A DNA stretch of 21,587 bases from a virus. Below are positions 12,109 to 21,243 of the stretch, one piece after another. How positions within the stretch are numbered: position 1 is the first letter of the stretch; the number at the start of each line of letters is the position of its first letter. The notes beneath the pieces are model-generated. The model ran no database searches, had not been told where the DNA came from, and saw only the letters and a program-made list of their open reading frames with translations. The stretch is from positions 1 to 21,587 of IMG/VR virus record IMGVR_UViG_3300035698_004529. One strand, given 5' to 3'. A program made the position numbers and the translations under genes.

Positions 12109-12609
12109 TTAAACTAAACGCCAGTACTGATAGGCGAATGTGCAATCAACCTTAACGATTTCGCCATCATCCTTGATGTCGTATTCGATTTCACCAACCG
12201 ATCTTGGGTATATTCCGACGAAATCATATCGTCTTAGAGTTTCGAAATTCTTACCTAGCAAGTCCATAGTTGCTAATTCAATAGGAACGCCATATTTACC
12301 AGTAGAGGAGACTTCGTCGAAGATTTCCTTCGTCCATGCTTCCATTTTATTTCTGATATTTAGACCCTCATCACATCTGAACGAGACTTTCCATGAGTCA
12401 GAACCCGGAAACTTGACAGTACCCGGAACGTTGAAGTCTAGCCCCATGTAGGGTGTTGGTTTATTTTGAATTTCCTTGTTAGGAAGTGTTGCTGTTTCGA
12501 CGTATAATAGATCGTCGCTAGTAAATGGCCCAAGTGAACGTAGTCTGAACTGGAACTTTCTTGCAAATTCCATTTTCTGAGCGGCATTATAAAATTCTTG
12601 AATAGACAT
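12109..12609 (-). CDS. 19: Tail tube protein gp19
   Basis: The 166-aa protein matches T4 gp19 (163 aa), the subunit of the inner tail tube. Features are an N-terminal helix (FYNAAQKMEFARKFQFRL, like T4 'AFESGDFARPNLFQVEI'), then VETATLPNKEIQNKPTPYMG (T4 'CKATALPAGIVEKIPVGFM'), a DSWKVSFRCDEG strand (T4 'DDWTVTVMNDE'), a FVGIYPRSVGEIEYD segment (T4 'KGLWPTNVGELQLDWD') and a C-terminal FAYQYWRL (T4 'LALDYWE'). These line up along the whole length. It has its own late-type motif (12628-12635) with AAGGAG, and its own terminator (12055-12084), so it is probably transcribed as a strong single-gene unit. Confidence 0.93.
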   Translation of the reverse strand: MSIQEFYNAAQKMEFARKFQFRLRSLGPFTSDDLLYVETATLPNKEIQNKPTPYMGLDFNVPGTVKFPGSDSWKVSFRCDEGLNIRNKMEAWTKEIFDEVSSTGKYGVPIELATMDLLGKNFETLRRYDFVGIYPRSVGEIEYDIKDDGEIVKVDCTFAYQYWRLV

Positions 12610-12652: not shown

Positions 12653-12994
12653 TTACAAACTTTTAGTACTTTTATCTGTATTAATAATAAAATTTGCTGT
12701 TTCCTTTGCAGTCTTGACTGCATCTCCAAATCTTTCTGCTTGTAAAAAGCTCGAAACCTTTATAATACCTTCTGAATGTTCGGGTGATGTTCCCAGTTGT
12801 TGAGGATCGTCGATCTGACCTAATTGCTTTAAGAAATGATTGACCAGTTCACTAGATGCTGTTTCAACACCCCTTTCAGCTATAAGCCTTTGCAATCTAT
12901 ATTGTCCATTACGGTTAAGTCCTTCTTCAAATCCCTGAAACATTTGGCTTCTTTCATAAATTAGTTCTAAGTCTCTTTCTTCTTTACTTCTCAT
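12653..12994 (-). CDS. Unknown 113-aa protein between the homing endonuclease locus and gp19
   Basis: I do not recognise this protein. It is predicted to be mostly helical and charged (RSKEERDLELIYERSQMFQGFEEGLNRNGQYRLQRLIAERG), with no membrane segment or cysteine cluster. A good AAGGAG ribosome site and a late-type motif (13011-13018) precede it, so it is expressed late with the tail genes. It lies between gp18 and gp19, which are adjacent in T4, so it may have come with the nearby endonuclease genes or be a minor tail protein. Neither is shown by sequence. Confidence 0.7.
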   Translation of the reverse strand: MRSKEERDLELIYERSQMFQGFEEGLNRNGQYRLQRLIAERGVETASSELVNHFLKQLGQIDDPQQLGTSPEHSEGIIKVSSFLQAERFGDAVKTAKETANFIINTDKSTKSL

Positions 12995-13056: not shown

Positions 13057-13344
13057 ATGATGAAAAGATTGACCATCAAAGCTAGAAACAAGTCTGGAAA
13101 CTTCCCATGTGATATATGTGGAGAGGTTGAATACCTTGAGGAGCACCATTTAAACGGACGTAAGGTGCCAAATCCCAACCATTCATCTAATTTAGCTAAC
13201 ATATGTCCAAATTGTCATGGAAGAGTACACAGGGGCGTTATCGTGGTCGAGCAATGGGTTCAAACCACCGATGGAATGAAGCTCTTGTGGCATCATGAGG
13301 GTAAAAACCCAGATATTGGGGATTCTGACACATATATTATTTGA
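13057..13344 (+). CDS. Small HNH endonuclease, opposite strand to its surroundings
   Basis: The 95-aa product is an HNH nuclease of the zinc-bound type. Cys18, Cys21, Cys50 and Cys53 form two knuckles (CDIC and CPNC). His30/His31 (EEHHLNGR), Asn45 (SSNLANIC) and His54/His58 (CHGRVH) supply the HNH catalytic motif. Such free-standing HNH enzymes are common homing endonucleases in T4-like phages. It is the only + strand gene within the - strand late region, and its 3' end overlaps the large endonuclease by 8 bases, tail to tail. Two ATGs stand in tandem; no ribosome site is visible, and a GTAAATA lies 3 bases upstream. How it is expressed is unclear. A role in DNA packaging (HNH proteins beside terminases) is possible but less likely at this site. 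Confidence 0.8.
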   Translation: MMKRLTIKARNKSGNFPCDICGEVEYLEEHHLNGRKVPNPNHSSNLANICPNCHGRVHRGVIVVEQWVQTTDGMKLLWHHEGKNPDIGDSDTYII

Positions 13345-15040
13345 TTTTTTTCTGGAATACTAAATTACCACAATCCCATATTCTGTCATATCCATTCGCT
13401 TTCATATTTTTCCATTCAGATATATCAGCGTCGAATGTTTTAAGTAAACCGGATAGTTTATGTTTTTGGTATTTTTGTCTATGTAGACGCTCTAAATTCC
13501 CATTCGATTTAATGTAGAAATAATTTGGGGTCGATGTGTGCGATAGATCAAAACCCAATTTGTGATATACGCCACCCGTTCCCCACCTAAGATCGCAATA
13601 TGATACAAGCACACCATCAAGCATATTAATTTCAGCATGTTTTAATAATTTAGATGCAATTCCAATTATATTCGTGTTCTGAACCGAACAAAACCTTAAT
13701 AACTCCCACCCATCTTTAGAATCAAATCTACGTTTTCCGAACGTCATGATAGCAACTAACACTCCATCGTGATACGCCCCTAAATTATAAGATGATCTAC
13801 AATCACCTTGGATGTGATTATTATTTATGAACTCTCGTTTAATCTTTGATGATATATCTTTGATGATGCAATTTCTGGCATATATTATATTGGAAGATTT
13901 TCTAAAAGCATTCAACAGTCTCGATTTTACAATATCGTTCTTATTAAACCACTCATCTTCGAATACATGTATTAACCTAATACCGACTTTAGAACACGCA
14001 TTGGTTTTATCTATATGATAATTTTTAGATTTGTTTCCAGAACATTCAGAGTGCCAATATAACCCATTAAATTCGACTCCAATATTCAACGATGGAATAT
14101 AAACATCCAATTCCATGGGGTTTATGATGATCCTATCGTTCCTAATTATATCCAATCCTGTTGATTCAATCCAATCAGCCATATCAGATTCTGGCTGTGA
14201 TTTTAAACTTCTATCACACGTTGGACAACGGATTCCACTGTGATCAAAAAAGTCCTCAAATTCCAAATTACACCTGAGACACTTAAATTTATATCTGGAA
14301 TATATACTCCCAGAATGAGTTCCAATGTATTCATCCTTTTTAAAAAGAAAACGAACATTTGATGAATATTGTTTCTCCATTTTCTCGTAAAATGCACTCT
14401 TCTGTCCTAATCCAGTTTTGTATACGTTTCCAATTCTAGAGCTTGATACCTTTTTTCTTATAATTGGAGATGCCATTGGAGAATCACCCCCATACTTTTC
14501 ATTATTAGTCTTCTTTATTTGTTCTCGAATTTTTGGGTTTGATAACGGAGATTTAAACCCCGTCTTATCTTGATACGACTTCATATGCAATCCCGTTTTT
14601 GAATACGAGATTTCATTGTATTTAGAAAGACACGTTCTTCGGGATTTCTCTAAAACTTCGGGATCATGTAATGGGGAATTTCCTCCATATCTTACGTTAT
14701 TAGTTTTTTTAATTCGATTCTTAACAATGCTAGATTTTGCTGGATTATCTACTCCATATATAGAATTACATTTACATTTTTTACTACAAACGGAATCATA
14801 ACCATCTAAAAAACCCACAAACCTAGCTGAATTTCCACATTCAACACAGTCCGGGAGCGTCGAAACACCATTAATATATCTATAGAGAGACTCCGTGAAC
14901 GTACTCCCAGTATAACTTCGTATTGATTCAATCAGATTATTTCCAAATTTTCGTTTTAATACCCACTGAATATTACCAAACGATCTCATGTTTTTATAAT
15001 CGGATGTGTACTCCTTCAATATCTCTAATATCTCATCCAT
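13337..15040 (-). CDS. Large Vsr-like (EDxHD) homing endonuclease with acetyltransferase-like C-terminal domain
   Basis: I place the start at 15040 (MDEILEIL, 567 aa) because AAGGAG lies 6 bases before it; an ATG at 15067 lacks this. Domains: a zinc knuckle (C65, C68, C85, C89); about four DNA-binding repeats at 92-203 of the form 'N..YG...P..S..I..K...T' (YGVDNPAKSSIVKNRIKKT, KYGGDSPMASPIIRKKV); a second zinc knuckle (C254, C257, C272, C275); and a Vsr-like/PD-(D/E)XK nuclease core at about 282-365 with E284, D312, E323, H330 and H342 (MELDVYIPSLNIGVEFNGLYWH, then GIRLIHVFEDEW). The remaining ~190 residues look like a GNAT acetyltransferase (GAYHDGVLVAIMTFG, NIIGIASKLLKHAE, VYHKLGFDL). The gene is inserted between gp18 and gp19. 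It lies behind the sheath terminator and has no clear TAAATA motif, only CTAATTA at the equivalent place. Confidence 0.88.
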   Translation of the reverse strand: MDEILEILKEYTSDYKNMRSFGNIQWVLKRKFGNNLIESIRSYTGSTFTESLYRYINGVSTLPDCVECGNSARFVGFLDGYDSVCSKKCKCNSIYGVDNPAKSSIVKNRIKKTNNVRYGGNSPLHDPEVLEKSRRTCLSKYNEISYSKTGLHMKSYQDKTGFKSPLSNPKIREQIKKTNNEKYGGDSPMASPIIRKKVSSSRIGNVYKTGLGQKSAFYEKMEKQYSSNVRFLFKKDEYIGTHSGSIYSRYKFKCLRCNLEFEDFFDHSGIRCPTCDRSLKSQPESDMADWIESTGLDIIRNDRIIINPMELDVYIPSLNIGVEFNGLYWHSECSGNKSKNYHIDKTNACSKVGIRLIHVFEDEWFNKNDIVKSRLLNAFRKSSNIIYARNCIIKDISSKIKREFINNNHIQGDCRSSYNLGAYHDGVLVAIMTFGKRRFDSKDGWELLRFCSVQNTNIIGIASKLLKHAEINMLDGVLVSYCDLRWGTGGVYHKLGFDLSHTSTPNYFYIKSNGNLERLHRQKYQKHKLSGLLKTFDADISEWKNMKANGYDRIWDCGNLVFQKKIK

Positions 15041-15123
15041 AACAATCTCCTTATAATTAATTAGCATAACATCTAGGTTAAAACAAGGGATAATTTAATA
15101 AAAATATACACGAACTCAACGAA

Positions 15124-17496: not shown

Positions 17497-18111
17497 TTAT
17501 TCATTTACCATAACCACTTCCATTTGACTGAATTCAAAGTCAAAAGTCCCCTCTACTTGGGATGAATCTTGAAATTCAAAATTCAATCCTGAGAGTTTAA
17601 TCGGGAACGAGTTGTGGAATTTAAATTCACATATTGGCTCATTGTACTCATCTAGTGGATATATGGAGATAATCGTTTGATAATCCAAGTAATTATCGGT
17701 TTTTTCGATTTGTCCATCCCCATTATACGTTGTTGGGTGAGCAATTTGGTCATCAACACCAGACTCTCTCACTTTATTGAGTAAATCCAGCCATTTCCAC
17801 AAGACCCAGTAGTTTCTGAACCTGTTATCGATTACATATTTACACGACACAGGGTCGTATGCCTCACGATTTTGTGATGTCACCTTGACGGTTTGACCCA
17901 TCGTTGGTAGTGATTTAGATGGAATAGAAACATCAGGTATGGTTGCTGAATGTAACGAGAATTGCACTGAATCCACGTTAATTACGTCCTTTGTTATAGC
18001 ATCCCAATCCTTGCTGTCTATATCCCTTAATATTGGTGGAAGTGTCAATATCATGCGAAATTTATCTAGTCTCTGTTTGTTTAAAACAGATTGAAAAGTG
18101 TTATCTGTCAT
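17497..18111 (-). CDS. gp19-like tail tube paralogue or tail-completion protein
   Basis: I place the start at 18111 (MTDNTFQSV, 204 aa) because AGGAGA lies 4 bases upstream; the ATG at 18135 would overlap the terminase end and lacks a site. The sequence has tail-tube features: an early strand (FRMILTLPPI), a 'VQFSLHSATIPDVSIPSKSLPTMGQTVKV' region like the tube-fold strand-loop-strand, a NRFRNYWVLWKWLDLLN helix, and FPIKLSGLNFEF / GTFDFEFSQMEV strands at the C-terminus. It is about 40 residues longer than gp19 and lies before the sheath, while the classic gp19 lies after it. It may be a second tube protein or a tube terminator (a gp3/gp15-type role). It follows gp17 by 8 bases, so it is probably co-expressed with the nuclease half of the terminase. 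Confidence 0.7.
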   Translation of the reverse strand: MTDNTFQSVLNKQRLDKFRMILTLPPILRDIDSKDWDAITKDVINVDSVQFSLHSATIPDVSIPSKSLPTMGQTVKVTSQNREAYDPVSCKYVIDNRFRNYWVLWKWLDLLNKVRESGVDDQIAHPTTYNGDGQIEKTDNYLDYQTIISIYPLDEYNEPICEFKFHNSFPIKLSGLNFEFQDSSQVEGTFDFEFSQMEVVMVNE

Positions 18112-18119
18112 AGTTTCTC

Positions 18120-19334
18120 CTATACTAAGCTCCACCCAGCACCCAATAAGTCATTAACGTCTGGGTTGTTTGGGTCTTCGGGTTCCATTCCAAACAACAT
18201 AGGCATTGGTGCCCCCGGGGTCATCTGGTAAAAATCATCTAACTGGTAAAATTGTGGTGCTTCCACATATATATTACCGATTTTGCTAGGCTTTCCACGT
18301 TCATCATACTGTTGAACATCGAAATATTCTCTACAAAGGTCGCTGTCTAATGGAAGTAGTGCCCAGAACAGAGCATCAACACGGTCATCGTATACATCTC
18401 TTCCATCCTTCTTCTTCCAAACACCATTAGGTCTTCGGATGAAGGTTTCCAACTCATGAACCAAATTGATGTCATTTACATTAAGAACATCCAATGTGTT
18501 GATCCAATACCTCATGTTACTGACCCCTTTATATTTGGTTGATGTGGATGAATAACACCCAAATCGCTGTTTAGCTAAATTGGTATTGCTCGTGGTTGTC
18601 GTAAAGTTTACAAATTTATTGTATCCAAATGTGTGGAATAGCTCATCGATGACCTGTCCACCAGCATTATTTCTTTCGATTGCCATGTATGGGCGACCCC
18701 ACTGATTGGCAATTCTGAATAAAACTTCACCAAAGAAGTGAGGATCAATCAGTTTATCATGGAAGCAAGCCACCTGTCTAATATCTGTAAGGTCTGTAAT
18801 ATCAAGGACTTGTGCAACAGATGCGGCTTCACCTACACCCTCACTCACATCCACACCTATACTGTACAGGCGAGACGGATCTGGCTTTTCCCAAATCTGA
18901 TAATGTCCATCTTCCAATAATGCAATCGGAGGCTTTCTTGTTTTTCTCCATCTATCAAGAATAGCTCCATCAACCGCACTTTCACCAGTTTCAATGAACT
19001 GACAATTGTGTGATAATATCCCATCAGAATAAAATACATGACCATTTTCAACCTCCAATAAATCATACACATCCTCTTCACGCCCAGTAGGTTCGAGTTT
19101 AATGATCACTTCCAATCCACTTTCCGTTTCAAGTTTATCTCCAACCTTTAATTCGGAATATTTTATGGTGGAACTGTTAACTTGAAATGGATGGTCATAT
19201 GAGCATTCCATTTCATGCGATTCAGTCTTGACGTAGTATAAATACTTTACCAATTTCTGCACACCCTTGAATGGCCGAAACCCACTTGGGGTTGATACTT
19301 CATACTCATCTGTATATTTAATTTCTACTTTCAT
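18120..19334 (-). CDS. 17: Large terminase gp17, C-terminal half (intein C-fragment + nuclease domain)
   Basis: Residues 1-110 are an intein C-fragment ending DGILSHN; residues 111-404 are the C-extein beginning CQFIETGESAVDG. The C-extein carries the RNase H-like packaging nuclease: Asp162 (YSIGVDVSEG), Glu220 (AIERNNAGG) and the Asp316/317/320 group (YDDRVDALF) match the catalytic acids D401, E458 and D542 of T4 gp17. This half lacks the ATPase motifs, which are on the other polypeptide (20323-21243), so it can act only after trans-splicing, giving a 566-aa enzyme (T4: 610 aa). The ATG has no ribosome site; a GTAAATA motif ends 5 bases before it. A Pro/Met-rich C-terminus (PGAPMPMLFGMEPED) may be the portal- or prohead-contact tail. 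Confidence 0.92.
   Translation of the reverse strand: MKVEIKYTDEYEVSTPSGFRPFKGVQKLVKYLYYVKTESHEMECSYDHPFQVNSSTIKYSELKVGDKLETESGLEVIIKLEPTGREEDVYDLLEVENGHVFYSDGILSHNCQFIETGESAVDGAILDRWRKTRKPPIALLEDGHYQIWEKPDPSRLYSIGVDVSEGVGEAASVAQVLDITDLTDIRQVACFHDKLIDPHFFGEVLFRIANQWGRPYMAIERNNAGGQVIDELFHTFGYNKFVNFTTTTSNTNLAKQRFGCYSSTSTKYKGVSNMRYWINTLDVLNVNDINLVHELETFIRRPNGVWKKKDGRDVYDDRVDALFWALLPLDSDLCREYFDVQQYDERGKPSKIGNIYVEAPQFYQLDDFYQMTPGAPMPMLFGMEPEDPNNPDVNDLLGAGWSLV
19005..19334 (-). other. Intein C-fragment (110 aa) of the split terminase intein
   Basis: Visible intein blocks: block B around residues 40-50 (HEMECSYDHPF, with the conserved His48), block F at about 86-102 (REEDVYDLLEVENGHVFYSDG) and block G at the end (ILSHN, then +1 Cys). 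The penultimate His and terminal Asn are the residues needed for Asn cyclisation. No LAGLIDADG endonuclease domain is present. At 110 residues it is far longer than the ~35-residue C-fragments of classical split inteins such as Npu DnaE. Confidence 0.93.
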
Positions 19335-19339
19335 ATAAC

Positions 19340-19347
19340 TATTTACT
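19340..19347 (-). promoter_or_regulatory. Candidate late promoter AGTAAATA directly before the gp17 C-half
   Basis: The - strand reads AGTAAATA-GTTAT-ATG. With the 5-base gap of T4 late promoters, the first transcribed base would be the A of the start codon, so the message may be leaderless. Unlike the other copies, no ribosome site follows. Confidence 0.5.
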
Positions 19348-19374
19348 AATATATCGATAAATATCTAGCTATTT

Positions 19375-20280
19375 TCAATACCAATCATCATATCCATCCC
19401 AACCATCGAATATAACCTTTACATTACAATTCAATGACTTTACGATATTTTGAAGTCTTTGTTTATCATATTCTCTATTATATTTATGTTCATATTCATA
19501 AATTTCATAGACGGTATTGGTGGCTTCGCAATACCCATCTACCAAATAATTTAAGATCCTATGAGATCGGTTTATTATACAATCATTCAAGACTTCCTGC
19601 TGGTTTAGTAATTTAACCTCATTGACCCCGATTGAGCATTTTAATTTTCCAGATTTAATTCCACCAAAATAACAATCATAACGTTCACATTCATACTGTT
19701 CGTATTTTTCTCTCCACGCACTTCCATATCTATTTTCGAAATGCGAGTGCGTCTGTAGCGTATCTCTACATATTCTACAAAATCTCTTTGTGAATTGTTG
19801 TCTAGCAGGATCAAACGTCAATCGCCTCCCGCAGTGGCAGGTCAACTCATCACCAATGATCCCACGATGCTCACCCACTATACATAGCCTGAGAGATAGT
19901 GGCTTCCTTGGAATTAGATCGCCAATTACTTCATCACTCCAATGTATTAATGATTTATATAATCTAGGGTCATCTTTAATCATTGTTCTATTCTTGGCCT
20001 TTCCGAAGTATTTGGTGTAATTGAGAGGTCTACTATTTAATAGATCGACAGTTTCCTCTTTGGTGTAAATATCTACAGTTTCCAATTCCCCTTTGACCTT
20101 TTCGTAATTGGTGTTCAGCGCTTTAACGATAGTCTTACTGGATGACGGACTCCCGCATCCATGCTTTGCAGTATTACTTCTCGATCTACTAATGGCACTA
20201 CATTCATTGTTACAACATTTCCTATTGCTTCCCCTCTTGGGGGTGAACTCTGCACCGCAAACTACGCAATTTCTAATCAT
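19375..20280 (-). CDS. Homing endonuclease inside the split terminase intein (Vsr-like, two zinc clusters)
   Basis: The 301-aa protein lies between the two terminase halves. Zinc cluster 1: Cys5, Cys8, Cys22/23 and Cys27 (CVVC...CC...C). Zinc cluster 2: Cys148, Cys150, Cys168 and Cys171 (CHC...CRIC). The C-terminal ~85 residues resemble the nuclease core of the 567-aa endonuclease at 13337-15040: Glu221, then YLVDGYCEATNTVYEIYEYEH with Asp248, Glu259/Glu262 and His265, then NCNVKVIFDGW. This is the Vsr-like/PD-(D/E)XK ('EDxHD') family known from fractured genes. It should cut intein-less terminase alleles and so spread the element. It has its own late-type motif (20299-20306) and AAGGAG. The specific activity is inference. 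Confidence 0.85.
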   Translation of the reverse strand: MIRNCVVCGAEFTPKRGSNRKCCNNECSAISRSRSNTAKHGCGSPSSSKTIVKALNTNYEKVKGELETVDIYTKEETVDLLNSRPLNYTKYFGKAKNRTMIKDDPRLYKSLIHWSDEVIGDLIPRKPLSLRLCIVGEHRGIIGDELTCHCGRRLTFDPARQQFTKRFCRICRDTLQTHSHFENRYGSAWREKYEQYECERYDCYFGGIKSGKLKCSIGVNEVKLLNQQEVLNDCIINRSHRILNYLVDGYCEATNTVYEIYEYEHKYNREYDKQRLQNIVKSLNCNVKVIFDGWDGYDDWY

Positions 20281-20298
20281 AAGTATTCTCCTTATAAG

Positions 20299-20306
20299 TA
20301 TTTAGG
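20299..20306 (-). promoter_or_regulatory. Candidate late promoter CCTAAATA before the intein endonuclease
   Basis: The - strand reads CCTAAATA-CTTAT-AAGGAG-N7-ATG, with the same layout as before gp18 and gp19. It lies 17 bases after the stop of the terminase N-half, so the endonuclease can be transcribed on its own late in infection. Confidence 0.62.
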
Positions 20307-20322
20307 CACGGGGAACTCTTGA

Positions 20323-20427
20323 TTAAGGGATTTTGTTGAAGAAATTTGATATTTTTTGCTTTATGCCGTTTTTGTTAGACAAATCACCCTTTTTTCTAAT
20401 GACGATTTCCGTCTCGGAGCCACAACA
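20323..20427 (-). other. Intein N-fragment (34 aa) of the split terminase intein
   Basis: The fragment begins CCGSETEIVIRKKGD. I take the first Cys as Cys1, because C-x-x-[GS]-[DE]-T-x-[IV] is the block A pattern and then the junction reads EFG/CQF. After block A the fragment runs only about 20 more residues (KQKISNFFNKIP) to a TAA. No block B is present; it lies in the other fragment. Confidence 0.9.
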
Positions 20428-21243
20428 GCCAAATTCTTGGTTGAAGGATTCCTGAGAGCCGAGAGATTCGATCATACTCTGCCTCCATTTCTTACCACGA
20501 CCGGGCAATTCGTGCCATTCCATCTTTTCATGATGCCATTCCTTACTATCACCACGTTCTGATTCAGAATAAATCTGATAAAACTTATTAGAGGTACCGT
20601 TAGGAGTGGAAATTAAGAAAATCTTAGTTTCAGATGATGCTGAAATAATAGGAATAACAGAATTCCAGAACTCATCCATGATATGTGGTTGAATAAAAGC
20701 GGCCTCATCAATGATAAGACAGTTGGCAGTTTCACCACGAGATGAACTACTAGATGTAGAACTGATCGTAATACGTGAGTCATTTGCAAAAACAACCTCA
20801 GTCTTACCCCACTGTTTAACACCGGGTTTTAACCAGTTGGGAAGATACTCATAGGCCATTCTGATCCTTCTAAGGATTTGAATAGCCGTTGCCTCTTTAT
20901 TAGCCACGATCATTACAGTCTTGTCTCCTTGGAAACAGGTCATCCATAATGCATAAATAGTCATCATAGTCGTCTTTCCTGTCTGACGTGAAGCCAAACA
21001 TACAACTCGGTTATGTTTACCTAAACTCTTAATGATACGTCTCTGTGGTCTGAAAAGTGATATTTTTTTCTTGCCTTCCTCAAGTGTTGTAATGAAAAAA
21101 TGATTCTCTGCGAAATGTGTAATGTTTTTGAAACATTTATCCATCTCTTTAATCATCTCCGGTGTATATTCGAACTCAGCCTTAACAGAAGGCAGGTTTG
21201 GGTTGCCCATGTAAATGCTCGGATCGAAATTATTTGTAGCCAT
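20323..21243 (-). CDS. 17: Large terminase gp17, N-terminal half (ATPase domain + intein N-fragment)
   Basis: Residues 1-272 are the ATPase of the packaging motor. The Walker A motif is S85-R-Q-T-G-K-T-T (T4: SRQLGKTT), Walker B is CLIIDEAAF with Asp179-Glu180, and motif III is ISTPNG (211-216). A QPHIMDEFW segment after Walker B and the ESFNQEFG end agree with T4-like terminases. Residues 273-306 are the intein N-fragment starting at Cys273, followed by a stop. The nuclease domain is encoded separately (18120-19334). This half alone would be a motor ATPase without a nuclease. It has a strong ribosome site (AAGGAG), and its start lies 9 bases after the upstream probable gp16 stop. Confidence 0.94.
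   Translation of the reverse strand: MATNNFDPSIYMGNPNLPSVKAEFEYTPEMIKEMDKCFKNITHFAENHFFITTLEEGKKKISLFRPQRRIIKSLGKHNRVVCLASRQTGKTTMMTIYALWMTCFQGDKTVMIVANKEATAIQILRRIRMAYEYLPNWLKPGVKQWGKTEVVFANDSRITISSTSSSSSRGETANCLIIDEAAFIQPHIMDEFWNSVIPIISASSETKIFLISTPNGTSNKFYQIYSESERGDSKEWHHEKMEWHELPGRGKKWRQSMIESLGSQESFNQEFGCCGSETEIVIRKKGDLSNKNGIKQKISNFFNKIP

What the first reader, a model, noticed from the sequence alone, without database searches (positions are those of the whole stretch)
18120..21243. Packaging terminase gene split into two cistrons joined by a split intein, with a homing endonuclease gene in the gap
The ATPase half ends in an intein N-fragment and a stop. The nuclease half starts with an intein C-fragment. 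A Vsr-like endonuclease gene lies between. The motifs at both junctions are intact (Cys1; His-Asn/+1 Cys), and both halves keep their catalytic residues, so this looks like a working fractured gene rather than a pseudogene. An essential motor protein would therefore depend on protein trans-splicing. The class is known (fractured genes; AceL-TerL-type terminase inteins), but mostly from metagenomic fragments.
Basis: partly seen in the sequence, partly recalled or inferred. Interest (0 to 1): 0.9.

Follow-up and report, generated by a model that had tools for sequence, protein, structure and literature searches.

The report
Phage motor gene fractured by split intein
In this T4-like phage the DNA-packaging motor gene is broken into two separate genes whose protein products almost certainly join themselves through a split intein, with a selfish nuclease gene in the break; the arrangement is real but belongs to an already known class, and its relatives show the nuclease gene decaying while the split stays.

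Summary
Confirmed. On the minus strand, gp17/TerL is encoded as an ATPase half (272 aa) plus a 34-aa intein N-fragment, a 301-aa nuclease gene, then a 110-aa intein C-fragment plus the nuclease half (294 aa). A relative whose halves are 94% and 91% identical has one continuous 566-aa TerL, joined exactly at the predicted splice point (272+294=566). The intein's best structural match is CatC (6dsl, E=1e-11), the engineered TerL consensus split intein. A second contig carries the same layout at 99.95% identity.

It is a new member of a known kind: "fractured genes" with AceL/GOS-TerL-type atypically split inteins. It is not confined to metagenomes: cultured phages (PX29, VP-1, Providencia and Serratia phages) are split at the same site.

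The relatives add more. This one site occurs empty, with a contiguous mini-intein, split with an intact HEG, split with a frameshifted HEG, and split with a 28-codon HEG relic, while the intein fragments stay under purifying selection. One relative's TerL is in three pieces with two different split inteins.

The nuclease is DUF559 (PD-(D/E)xK-like) with two Cys-rich zinc-finger-like motifs; EDxHD membership was not shown. Splicing and homing are inferred, not shown.

The parts
20428..21243 (-). TerL (gp17) N-extein: ATPase domain, 272 aa, Walker A SRQTGKTT and Walker B LIIDE intact
20326..20427 (-). Intein N-fragment, 34 aa: CCGSETEIVIRKKGDLSNKNGIKQKISNFFNKIP, Cys1 = first C; stop codon at 20323-20325
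   Evidence: register fixed by the continuous allele L004
20295..20305 (-). Late-promoter-like motif CTAAATACTTA followed by an AGGAG Shine-Dalgarno, upstream of the nuclease gene; the same motif precedes the tail sheath gene, the tail tube gene and ORF 12653-12994
   Evidence: 5 matches to STAAATANTTA in the window against 0.38 expected, 0 of 100 shuffles reach 5; positions
19375..20280 (-). Free-standing endonuclease gene, 301 aa, putative homing endonuclease; N-terminal CxxC..CCxxxC zinc-finger-like motif, a second CxC..CxxC ribbon, C-terminal DUF559 (PD-(D/E)xK) domain
   Evidence: DUF559 E=9.2e-5, 22.7 bits against cut-off 20.6; 29% identity to an E. coli phage DUF559 protein; homologue at the same site in L030-L032
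19447..19602 (-). DUF559 nuclease core, with D-G-Y...YE.YEYEH...D residues
19336..19346 (-). Second late-promoter-like motif GTAAATAGTTA, ending 1 base before the IntC ATG with no Shine-Dalgarno; kept in L003 as CTAAATAGTTA
19005..19334 (-). Intein C-fragment, 110 aa, blocks B (CSYDHPF), F (VYDLLEVENGHVFYSDGI) and G (LSHN)
   Evidence: TIGR01443 E=2.7e-5; CatC 6dsl E=1.2e-11
18123..19004 (-). TerL C-extein: RNase H-like nuclease domain, 294 aa, starts Cys+1 (CQFIETG); stop codon at 18120-18122
   Evidence: Terminase_6C E=7.7e-6; motifs; alignment

Best explanation
A T4-type gp17 gene is fractured at the ATPase/nuclease junction (T4 residue 352) by an atypically split class 1 intein and a free-standing putative homing endonuclease gene. 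SHOWN by sequence: the three ORFs, the intein fragments with Cys1, the B-block His, His-Asn and Cys+1, the catalytic motifs, and a continuous 566-aa allele in a close relative. INFERRED: both TerL precursors are made late in infection; the short N-fragment docks onto the long C-fragment; an N-S shift at Cys1, transfer to Cys+1 and Asn cyclisation give a seamless 566-aa motor protein. The endonuclease presumably cuts empty alleles near the same site, so that repair copies the endonuclease together with both intein fragments. Once fractured, the host gene depends on trans-splicing, so the fragments persist even after the endonuclease decays, as in L003 and L032.
For: Intein matches. Exact empty allele, 272+294=566 aa. 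Second assembly. Window vs L003 dN/dS: IntN 0.21, IntC 0.22, exteins 0.05-0.09. L003 keeps both fragments but only a 28-codon relic of the same nuclease gene between them, alignment score 72 against a maximum of 24 in 100 shuffles. L030-L032 are split at the same site with a 40%-identical nuclease that is frameshifted identically where the assemblies overlap. Occupied and empty alleles interleave on the extein tree, window with empty L004 at 97/100 support. Many isolates are split at the same site with other nuclease types. No Rfam intron in the window.
Against: No splicing, proteomic or cleavage data. IntN is divergent: CCGS where most have CxxG, and joined-intein hits rest on IntC residues. 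dN/dS of the intein parts is 2-5 times that of the exteins and dS is near saturation. The nuclease's homing activity and target are untested, and no confident fold was obtained.
Confidence: 0.88

Rival explanations
1. The two TerL halves work as a non-covalent complex without splicing, the intein fragments being mere tails, as reported for the Aeh1 ribonucleotide reductase NrdA-a/NrdA-b, which a homing endonuclease split without a splicing element.
For: Such a genes-in-pieces enzyme is known (Friedrich et al. 2007, cited in PMC3653736, and PMC10448857). The break lies at a natural domain boundary.
Against: Unlike NrdA, both fragments carry complete intein splicing motifs at residue-exact positions and stay under purifying selection.
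Confidence: 0.07
2. terL has been inactivated by insertion, and the phage packages with another terminase or is a dead lineage.
For: Only 21.6 kb of the genome is held, so a second terL elsewhere cannot be excluded.
Against: Extein dN/dS is 0.04-0.09, all catalytic motifs are intact, and the same fracture is retained in L003 at 74% C-extein identity.
Confidence: 0.03
3. The interruption is removed at RNA level or is an assembly artefact.
For: A terL intron is known in phage ICP1 (PMC10448857).
Against: No group I or II intron found by Rfam, the intein motifs account for both ends, and a second contig has the same structure.
Confidence: 0.02

Closest known systems
AceL-TerL / GOS-TerL / Cat-TerL atypically split inteins
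   Same: Terminase large subunit host gene; short IntN (25, 37, 30 aa; here 34) and long IntC (104, 115, 104 aa; here 110); Cys1/Cys+1 as in AceL-TerL (PMC11766414); IntC 38% identical to CatC.
   Different: Different sequence: IntN is divergent (CCGSETEI). Whether AceL-TerL and GOS-TerL lie at exactly this insertion site was not tested here.
Fractured genes with split intein and free-standing endonuclease (Dassa et al. 2009, NAR 37:2560)
   Same: Conserved phage enzyme broken in two by a split intein with a free-standing endonuclease gene between. Paper not held; its content is from memory and from papers citing it.
   Different: Host gene is TerL. The Vsr-like family membership of this nuclease is not shown.
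Aeromonas phage PX29 gp17A/gp17B and other isolates (Va1, VP-1, 1.244.A, PSTRCR_127, 92A1, EniLVp02)
   Same: gp17 split at the same ATPase/nuclease junction by a split intein.
   Different: GIY-YIG nuclease, often fused to IntC or IntN (PX29, VP-1, 1.244), or a DUF559 nuclease fused to IntC (Va1); here the nuclease is a separate gene. IntC only 26-32% identical.
Aeh1 NrdA-a/NrdA-b (genes in pieces)
   Same: T4-like phage enzyme split by a homing endonuclease gene.
   Different: There is no splicing element there.

Membership tests
T4-type TerL (gp17) | ATPase domain with Walker A/B and RNase H-like nuclease domain | tested here: met
   Terminase_6N E=5.7e-16, Terminase_6C E=7.7e-6; gp17 structures E=1e-41; motifs
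Class 1 intein | Cys/Ser1, block B His, penultimate His, terminal Asn, Cys/Ser/Thr+1 | tested here: met
   Cys1, CSYDHPF..LSHN|CQF; TIGR01443 E=2.7e-5
Atypically split TerL intein | Short IntN, long IntC, homologous to CatC | tested here: met
   34 + 110 aa; 6dsl E=1.2e-11
Split intein | Trans-splicing activity | not testable with these tools
   Needs co-expression or proteomics
Fractured gene | Endonuclease gene between the two halves; continuous homologue exists | tested here: met
   19375-20280(-) with DUF559; continuous L004, L005, L007
EDxHD / Vsr-like homing endonuclease (I-Bth0305I) | Homology to the family's catalytic core | tested here: inconclusive
   DUF559 match, but no PDB match, no profile match to the Va1-type group with very shallow profiles, and a low-confidence fold. 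An E..D..E..H..D pattern is visible by eye only.
Homing endonuclease | Cuts the empty allele at or near the insertion site | not testable with these tools
   Only indirect: presence/absence at one site and raised codon identity to L004 near the site

The most novel reading that the evidence does not exclude
The relatives show an evolutionary ratchet at one site: an endonuclease fractures the motor gene through an intein, then decays (frameshift in L032, 28-codon relic in L003) while the split cannot be undone because trans-splicing has become essential; and TerL of L003 is made from three polypeptides by two different split inteins that must not cross-react, because the middle piece carries the C-fragment of one and the N-fragment of the other.
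Probability: 0.6. Interest if true: 0.65.

Novelty: new member of a known kind. Interest (0 to 1): 0.45.

Why it matters
An essential packaging motor that depends on protein trans-splicing is a natural test of how selfish DNA becomes obligatory. This locus comes with close relatives that hold the empty, contiguous, fractured and decayed forms of the same site, so the order of events in gene fracturing can be tested rather than guessed. L003 would be a natural three-segment protein ligation by two split inteins, which engineers have been building artificially (PMC12707363, title and abstract only). The new intein pair could also add to the set of short-IntN tools.

Tried and rejected
Nucleotide search in 50,697 phage records: no match. 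Structure prediction of the nuclease from three rows: pLDDT 48, not used for a fold search. Profile comparison of the nuclease with Va1-type HEGs: no match with very shallow profiles. PDB search with the nuclease: only chance carboxysome hits. The window's other large HEG (13337-15067) is not detectably related to this one. RNA intron: none. Second Cys as Cys1: rejected, block A falls out of register and the product would have an extra Cys against L004. Identity of AceL/GOS-TerL extein site with this site: the PDB construct carries a changed extein, so it could not be tested. Dassa et al. 2009 could not be read. IMG sample id not found in papers. One earlier call with a wrong frame, and one incomplete submission.

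Full report
OBSERVATION. Three ORFs lie head to tail on the minus strand. 20323-21243 encodes 306 aa: a T4 gp17-type ATPase half (Terminase_6N E=5.7e-16; gp17 structures E=1e-41) that ends in CCGSETEIVIRKKGDLSNKNGIKQKISNFFNKIP. 18120-19334 encodes 404 aa: 110 aa ending ..VYDLLEVENGHVFYSDGILSHN (TIGR01443 intein C-terminal region E=2.7e-5), then CQFIETG.. and the RNase H-like nuclease half (Terminase_6C E=7.7e-6). Between them 19375-20280 encodes 301 aa with a DUF559 core above Pfam's cut-off (again). The joined intein fragments match CatC (6dsl), the engineered TerL consensus split intein, at E=1.2e-11; the aligned stretch lies within IntC.

THE SPLICE POINT. A relative in IMG/VR, L004, has a single 566-aa TerL, 94% identical to the N-extein and 91% to the C-extein, reading ..SFNQEFGCQFIETGESAVDG... 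Removing IntN and IntC from the window gives 272 + 294 = 566 aa. This fixes Cys1 as the first of the two cysteines. The site corresponds to T4 gp17 residue 352, close to the known boundary between the ATPase and nuclease domains (established knowledge). A separate contig, L002, has the same layout with 2 differences in 3710 bases, so it is not an assembly error.

SELECTION. Between the window and L003, dN/dS is 0.21 for IntN, 0.22 for IntC, 0.05 for the end of the N-extein and 0.09 for the C-extein. dS is near saturation, so the figures are rough, but all are far below 1.

RELATIVES AT THE SAME SITE. Empty: L004, L005, L007 and about 100 other fetched loci. Contiguous mini-intein of about 133 aa: L027-L029 and L098. 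Split with an intact nuclease gene: window and L002. Split with a 40%-identical nuclease broken by a frameshift: L030-L032. Split with a nuclease relic: in L003 the 122-base gap reads, in frame from a TTG, (M)IRNCIVA-ELNCDVKIIFDGWEGYDDWY-stop, that is, the first 7 and last 20 or so codons of the window's nuclease (MIRNCVV.. and ..LNCNVKVIFDGWDGYDDWY) with the middle deleted; local alignment score 72 against at most 24 in 100 mononucleotide shuffles. Split with GIY-YIG genes: L119 and L122 (GIY-YIG by eye). Cultured phages split at this site: PX29 (record notes 'putative N-intein' and 'GIY-YIG endonuclease and C-intein'), Va1, VP-1, 1.244.A, PSTRCR_127, 92A1, EniLVp02.

TREES. On C-exteins the window groups with empty L004 (97/100), with L003 and empty L005 next: occupied and empty alleles are interleaved. 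On IntC the window pairs with L003 (92/94), and L032 joins the contiguous L029/L098 inteins (99/97). Because the window and L032 share a homologous nuclease at the same place, either the fracture predates their split and L029/L098 re-fused, or the nuclease entered twice; the data do not decide.

RECOMBINATION. Among codons for identical amino acids, the window and L004 share 73% identical codons within 160 codons upstream and 80 downstream of the site, against 50% elsewhere (p=2e-7). Other pairs show weaker contrasts, L005/L003 being the largest at p=1e-3. The bins were chosen after seeing the data, so this is only suggestive of exchange around the site.

EXPRESSION. The motif [CG]TAAATANTTA occurs 5 times in the window (0.38 expected, 0 of 100 shuffles reach 5), all on the gene strand and just upstream of starts: the tail sheath gene, the tail tube gene, ORF 12653-12994, the nuclease gene (followed by AGGAG) and the IntC gene. 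At IntC it ends one base before the ATG with no Shine-Dalgarno, and L003 keeps this. By analogy with T4 late promoters (established knowledge) the IntC message could start at or next to its ATG. This is inference.

MECHANISM. Inferred steps: late synthesis of both precursors, docking of the short IntN onto IntC, class 1 splicing chemistry, and a ligated gp17. The nuclease is presumably a homing endonuclease that mobilises the whole cassette. The L003 and L032 states fit a cycle of invasion and nuclease decay in which the split intein stays because the host gene needs it.

MULTIPLE BREAKS. L003's TerL has a second split intein just before Walker B (ETAN|C ... SRQ|CLIIDE) with a GIY-YIG homing endonuclease (phrog_314 E=1.4e-33) in its gap, so TerL is in three pieces. 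Its two IntC fragments are 29% identical. L027-L029 combine a contiguous Walker A intein, a split Walker B intein and a contiguous junction intein.

KNOWN OR NEW. The arrangement is the fractured-gene class and the TerL atypical split inteins (PMC11766414; Dassa et al. 2009 known from memory and citations). I file it as a new member of a known kind. The nuclease's membership of the Vsr-like/EDxHD family remains unproven. I found no paper in the held library on a TerL in three pieces, but I did not search for that specifically, so no claim of priority is made.

Noticed in passing
L003 1199-1858, 1925-2803, 2806-3549, 3672-4871: TerL in three polypeptides with two different split inteins; a GIY-YIG homing endonuclease gene in the first gap and a 28-codon nuclease relic in the second. 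The Walker B intein ends SRQ|C instead of SHN|C.
   Followed up: partly
L029 1200-5679 (also L027, L028): TerL carrying three inteins: contiguous with a long insert at Walker A, split with a GIY-YIG gene before Walker B, contiguous mini-intein at the window's site.
   Followed up: partly
L025 3980-4462: The gap of a Walker B split intein holds a 160-aa ORF with no Pfam or PHROG match instead of a recognisable homing endonuclease.
   Followed up: partly
L005 3408-4178 (also L006): A 256-aa TerL ATPase-half paralogue just upstream of terL, ending at ..FKREMECVF, the same junction where other phages are split, with degenerate Walker motifs (ARQTGIS, FLADA).
   Followed up: partly
window 13337-15067 (-): A second free-standing homing endonuclease gene, 576 aa (phrog_3339 E=6.5e-129, DUF7487), with a Vsr-like VEFNGLYWH stretch and a Mom-like C-terminal domain (phrog_1384 E=5.7e-9; Pfam Mom below cut-off).
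   Followed up: partly
window 17497-18135 (-) and 12109-12609 (-): Two different tail-tube-like proteins, both phrog_45, one directly downstream of terL and one after the sheath.
   Followed up: no
L010 1102-3216 and L011 1337-3553: Vibrio phage isolates with further TerL inteins: vB_VmeM-32 has a C-fragment at Walker A and a contiguous intein after Walker B; VP-1 has a contiguous intein at Walker A plus the junction split.
   Followed up: no
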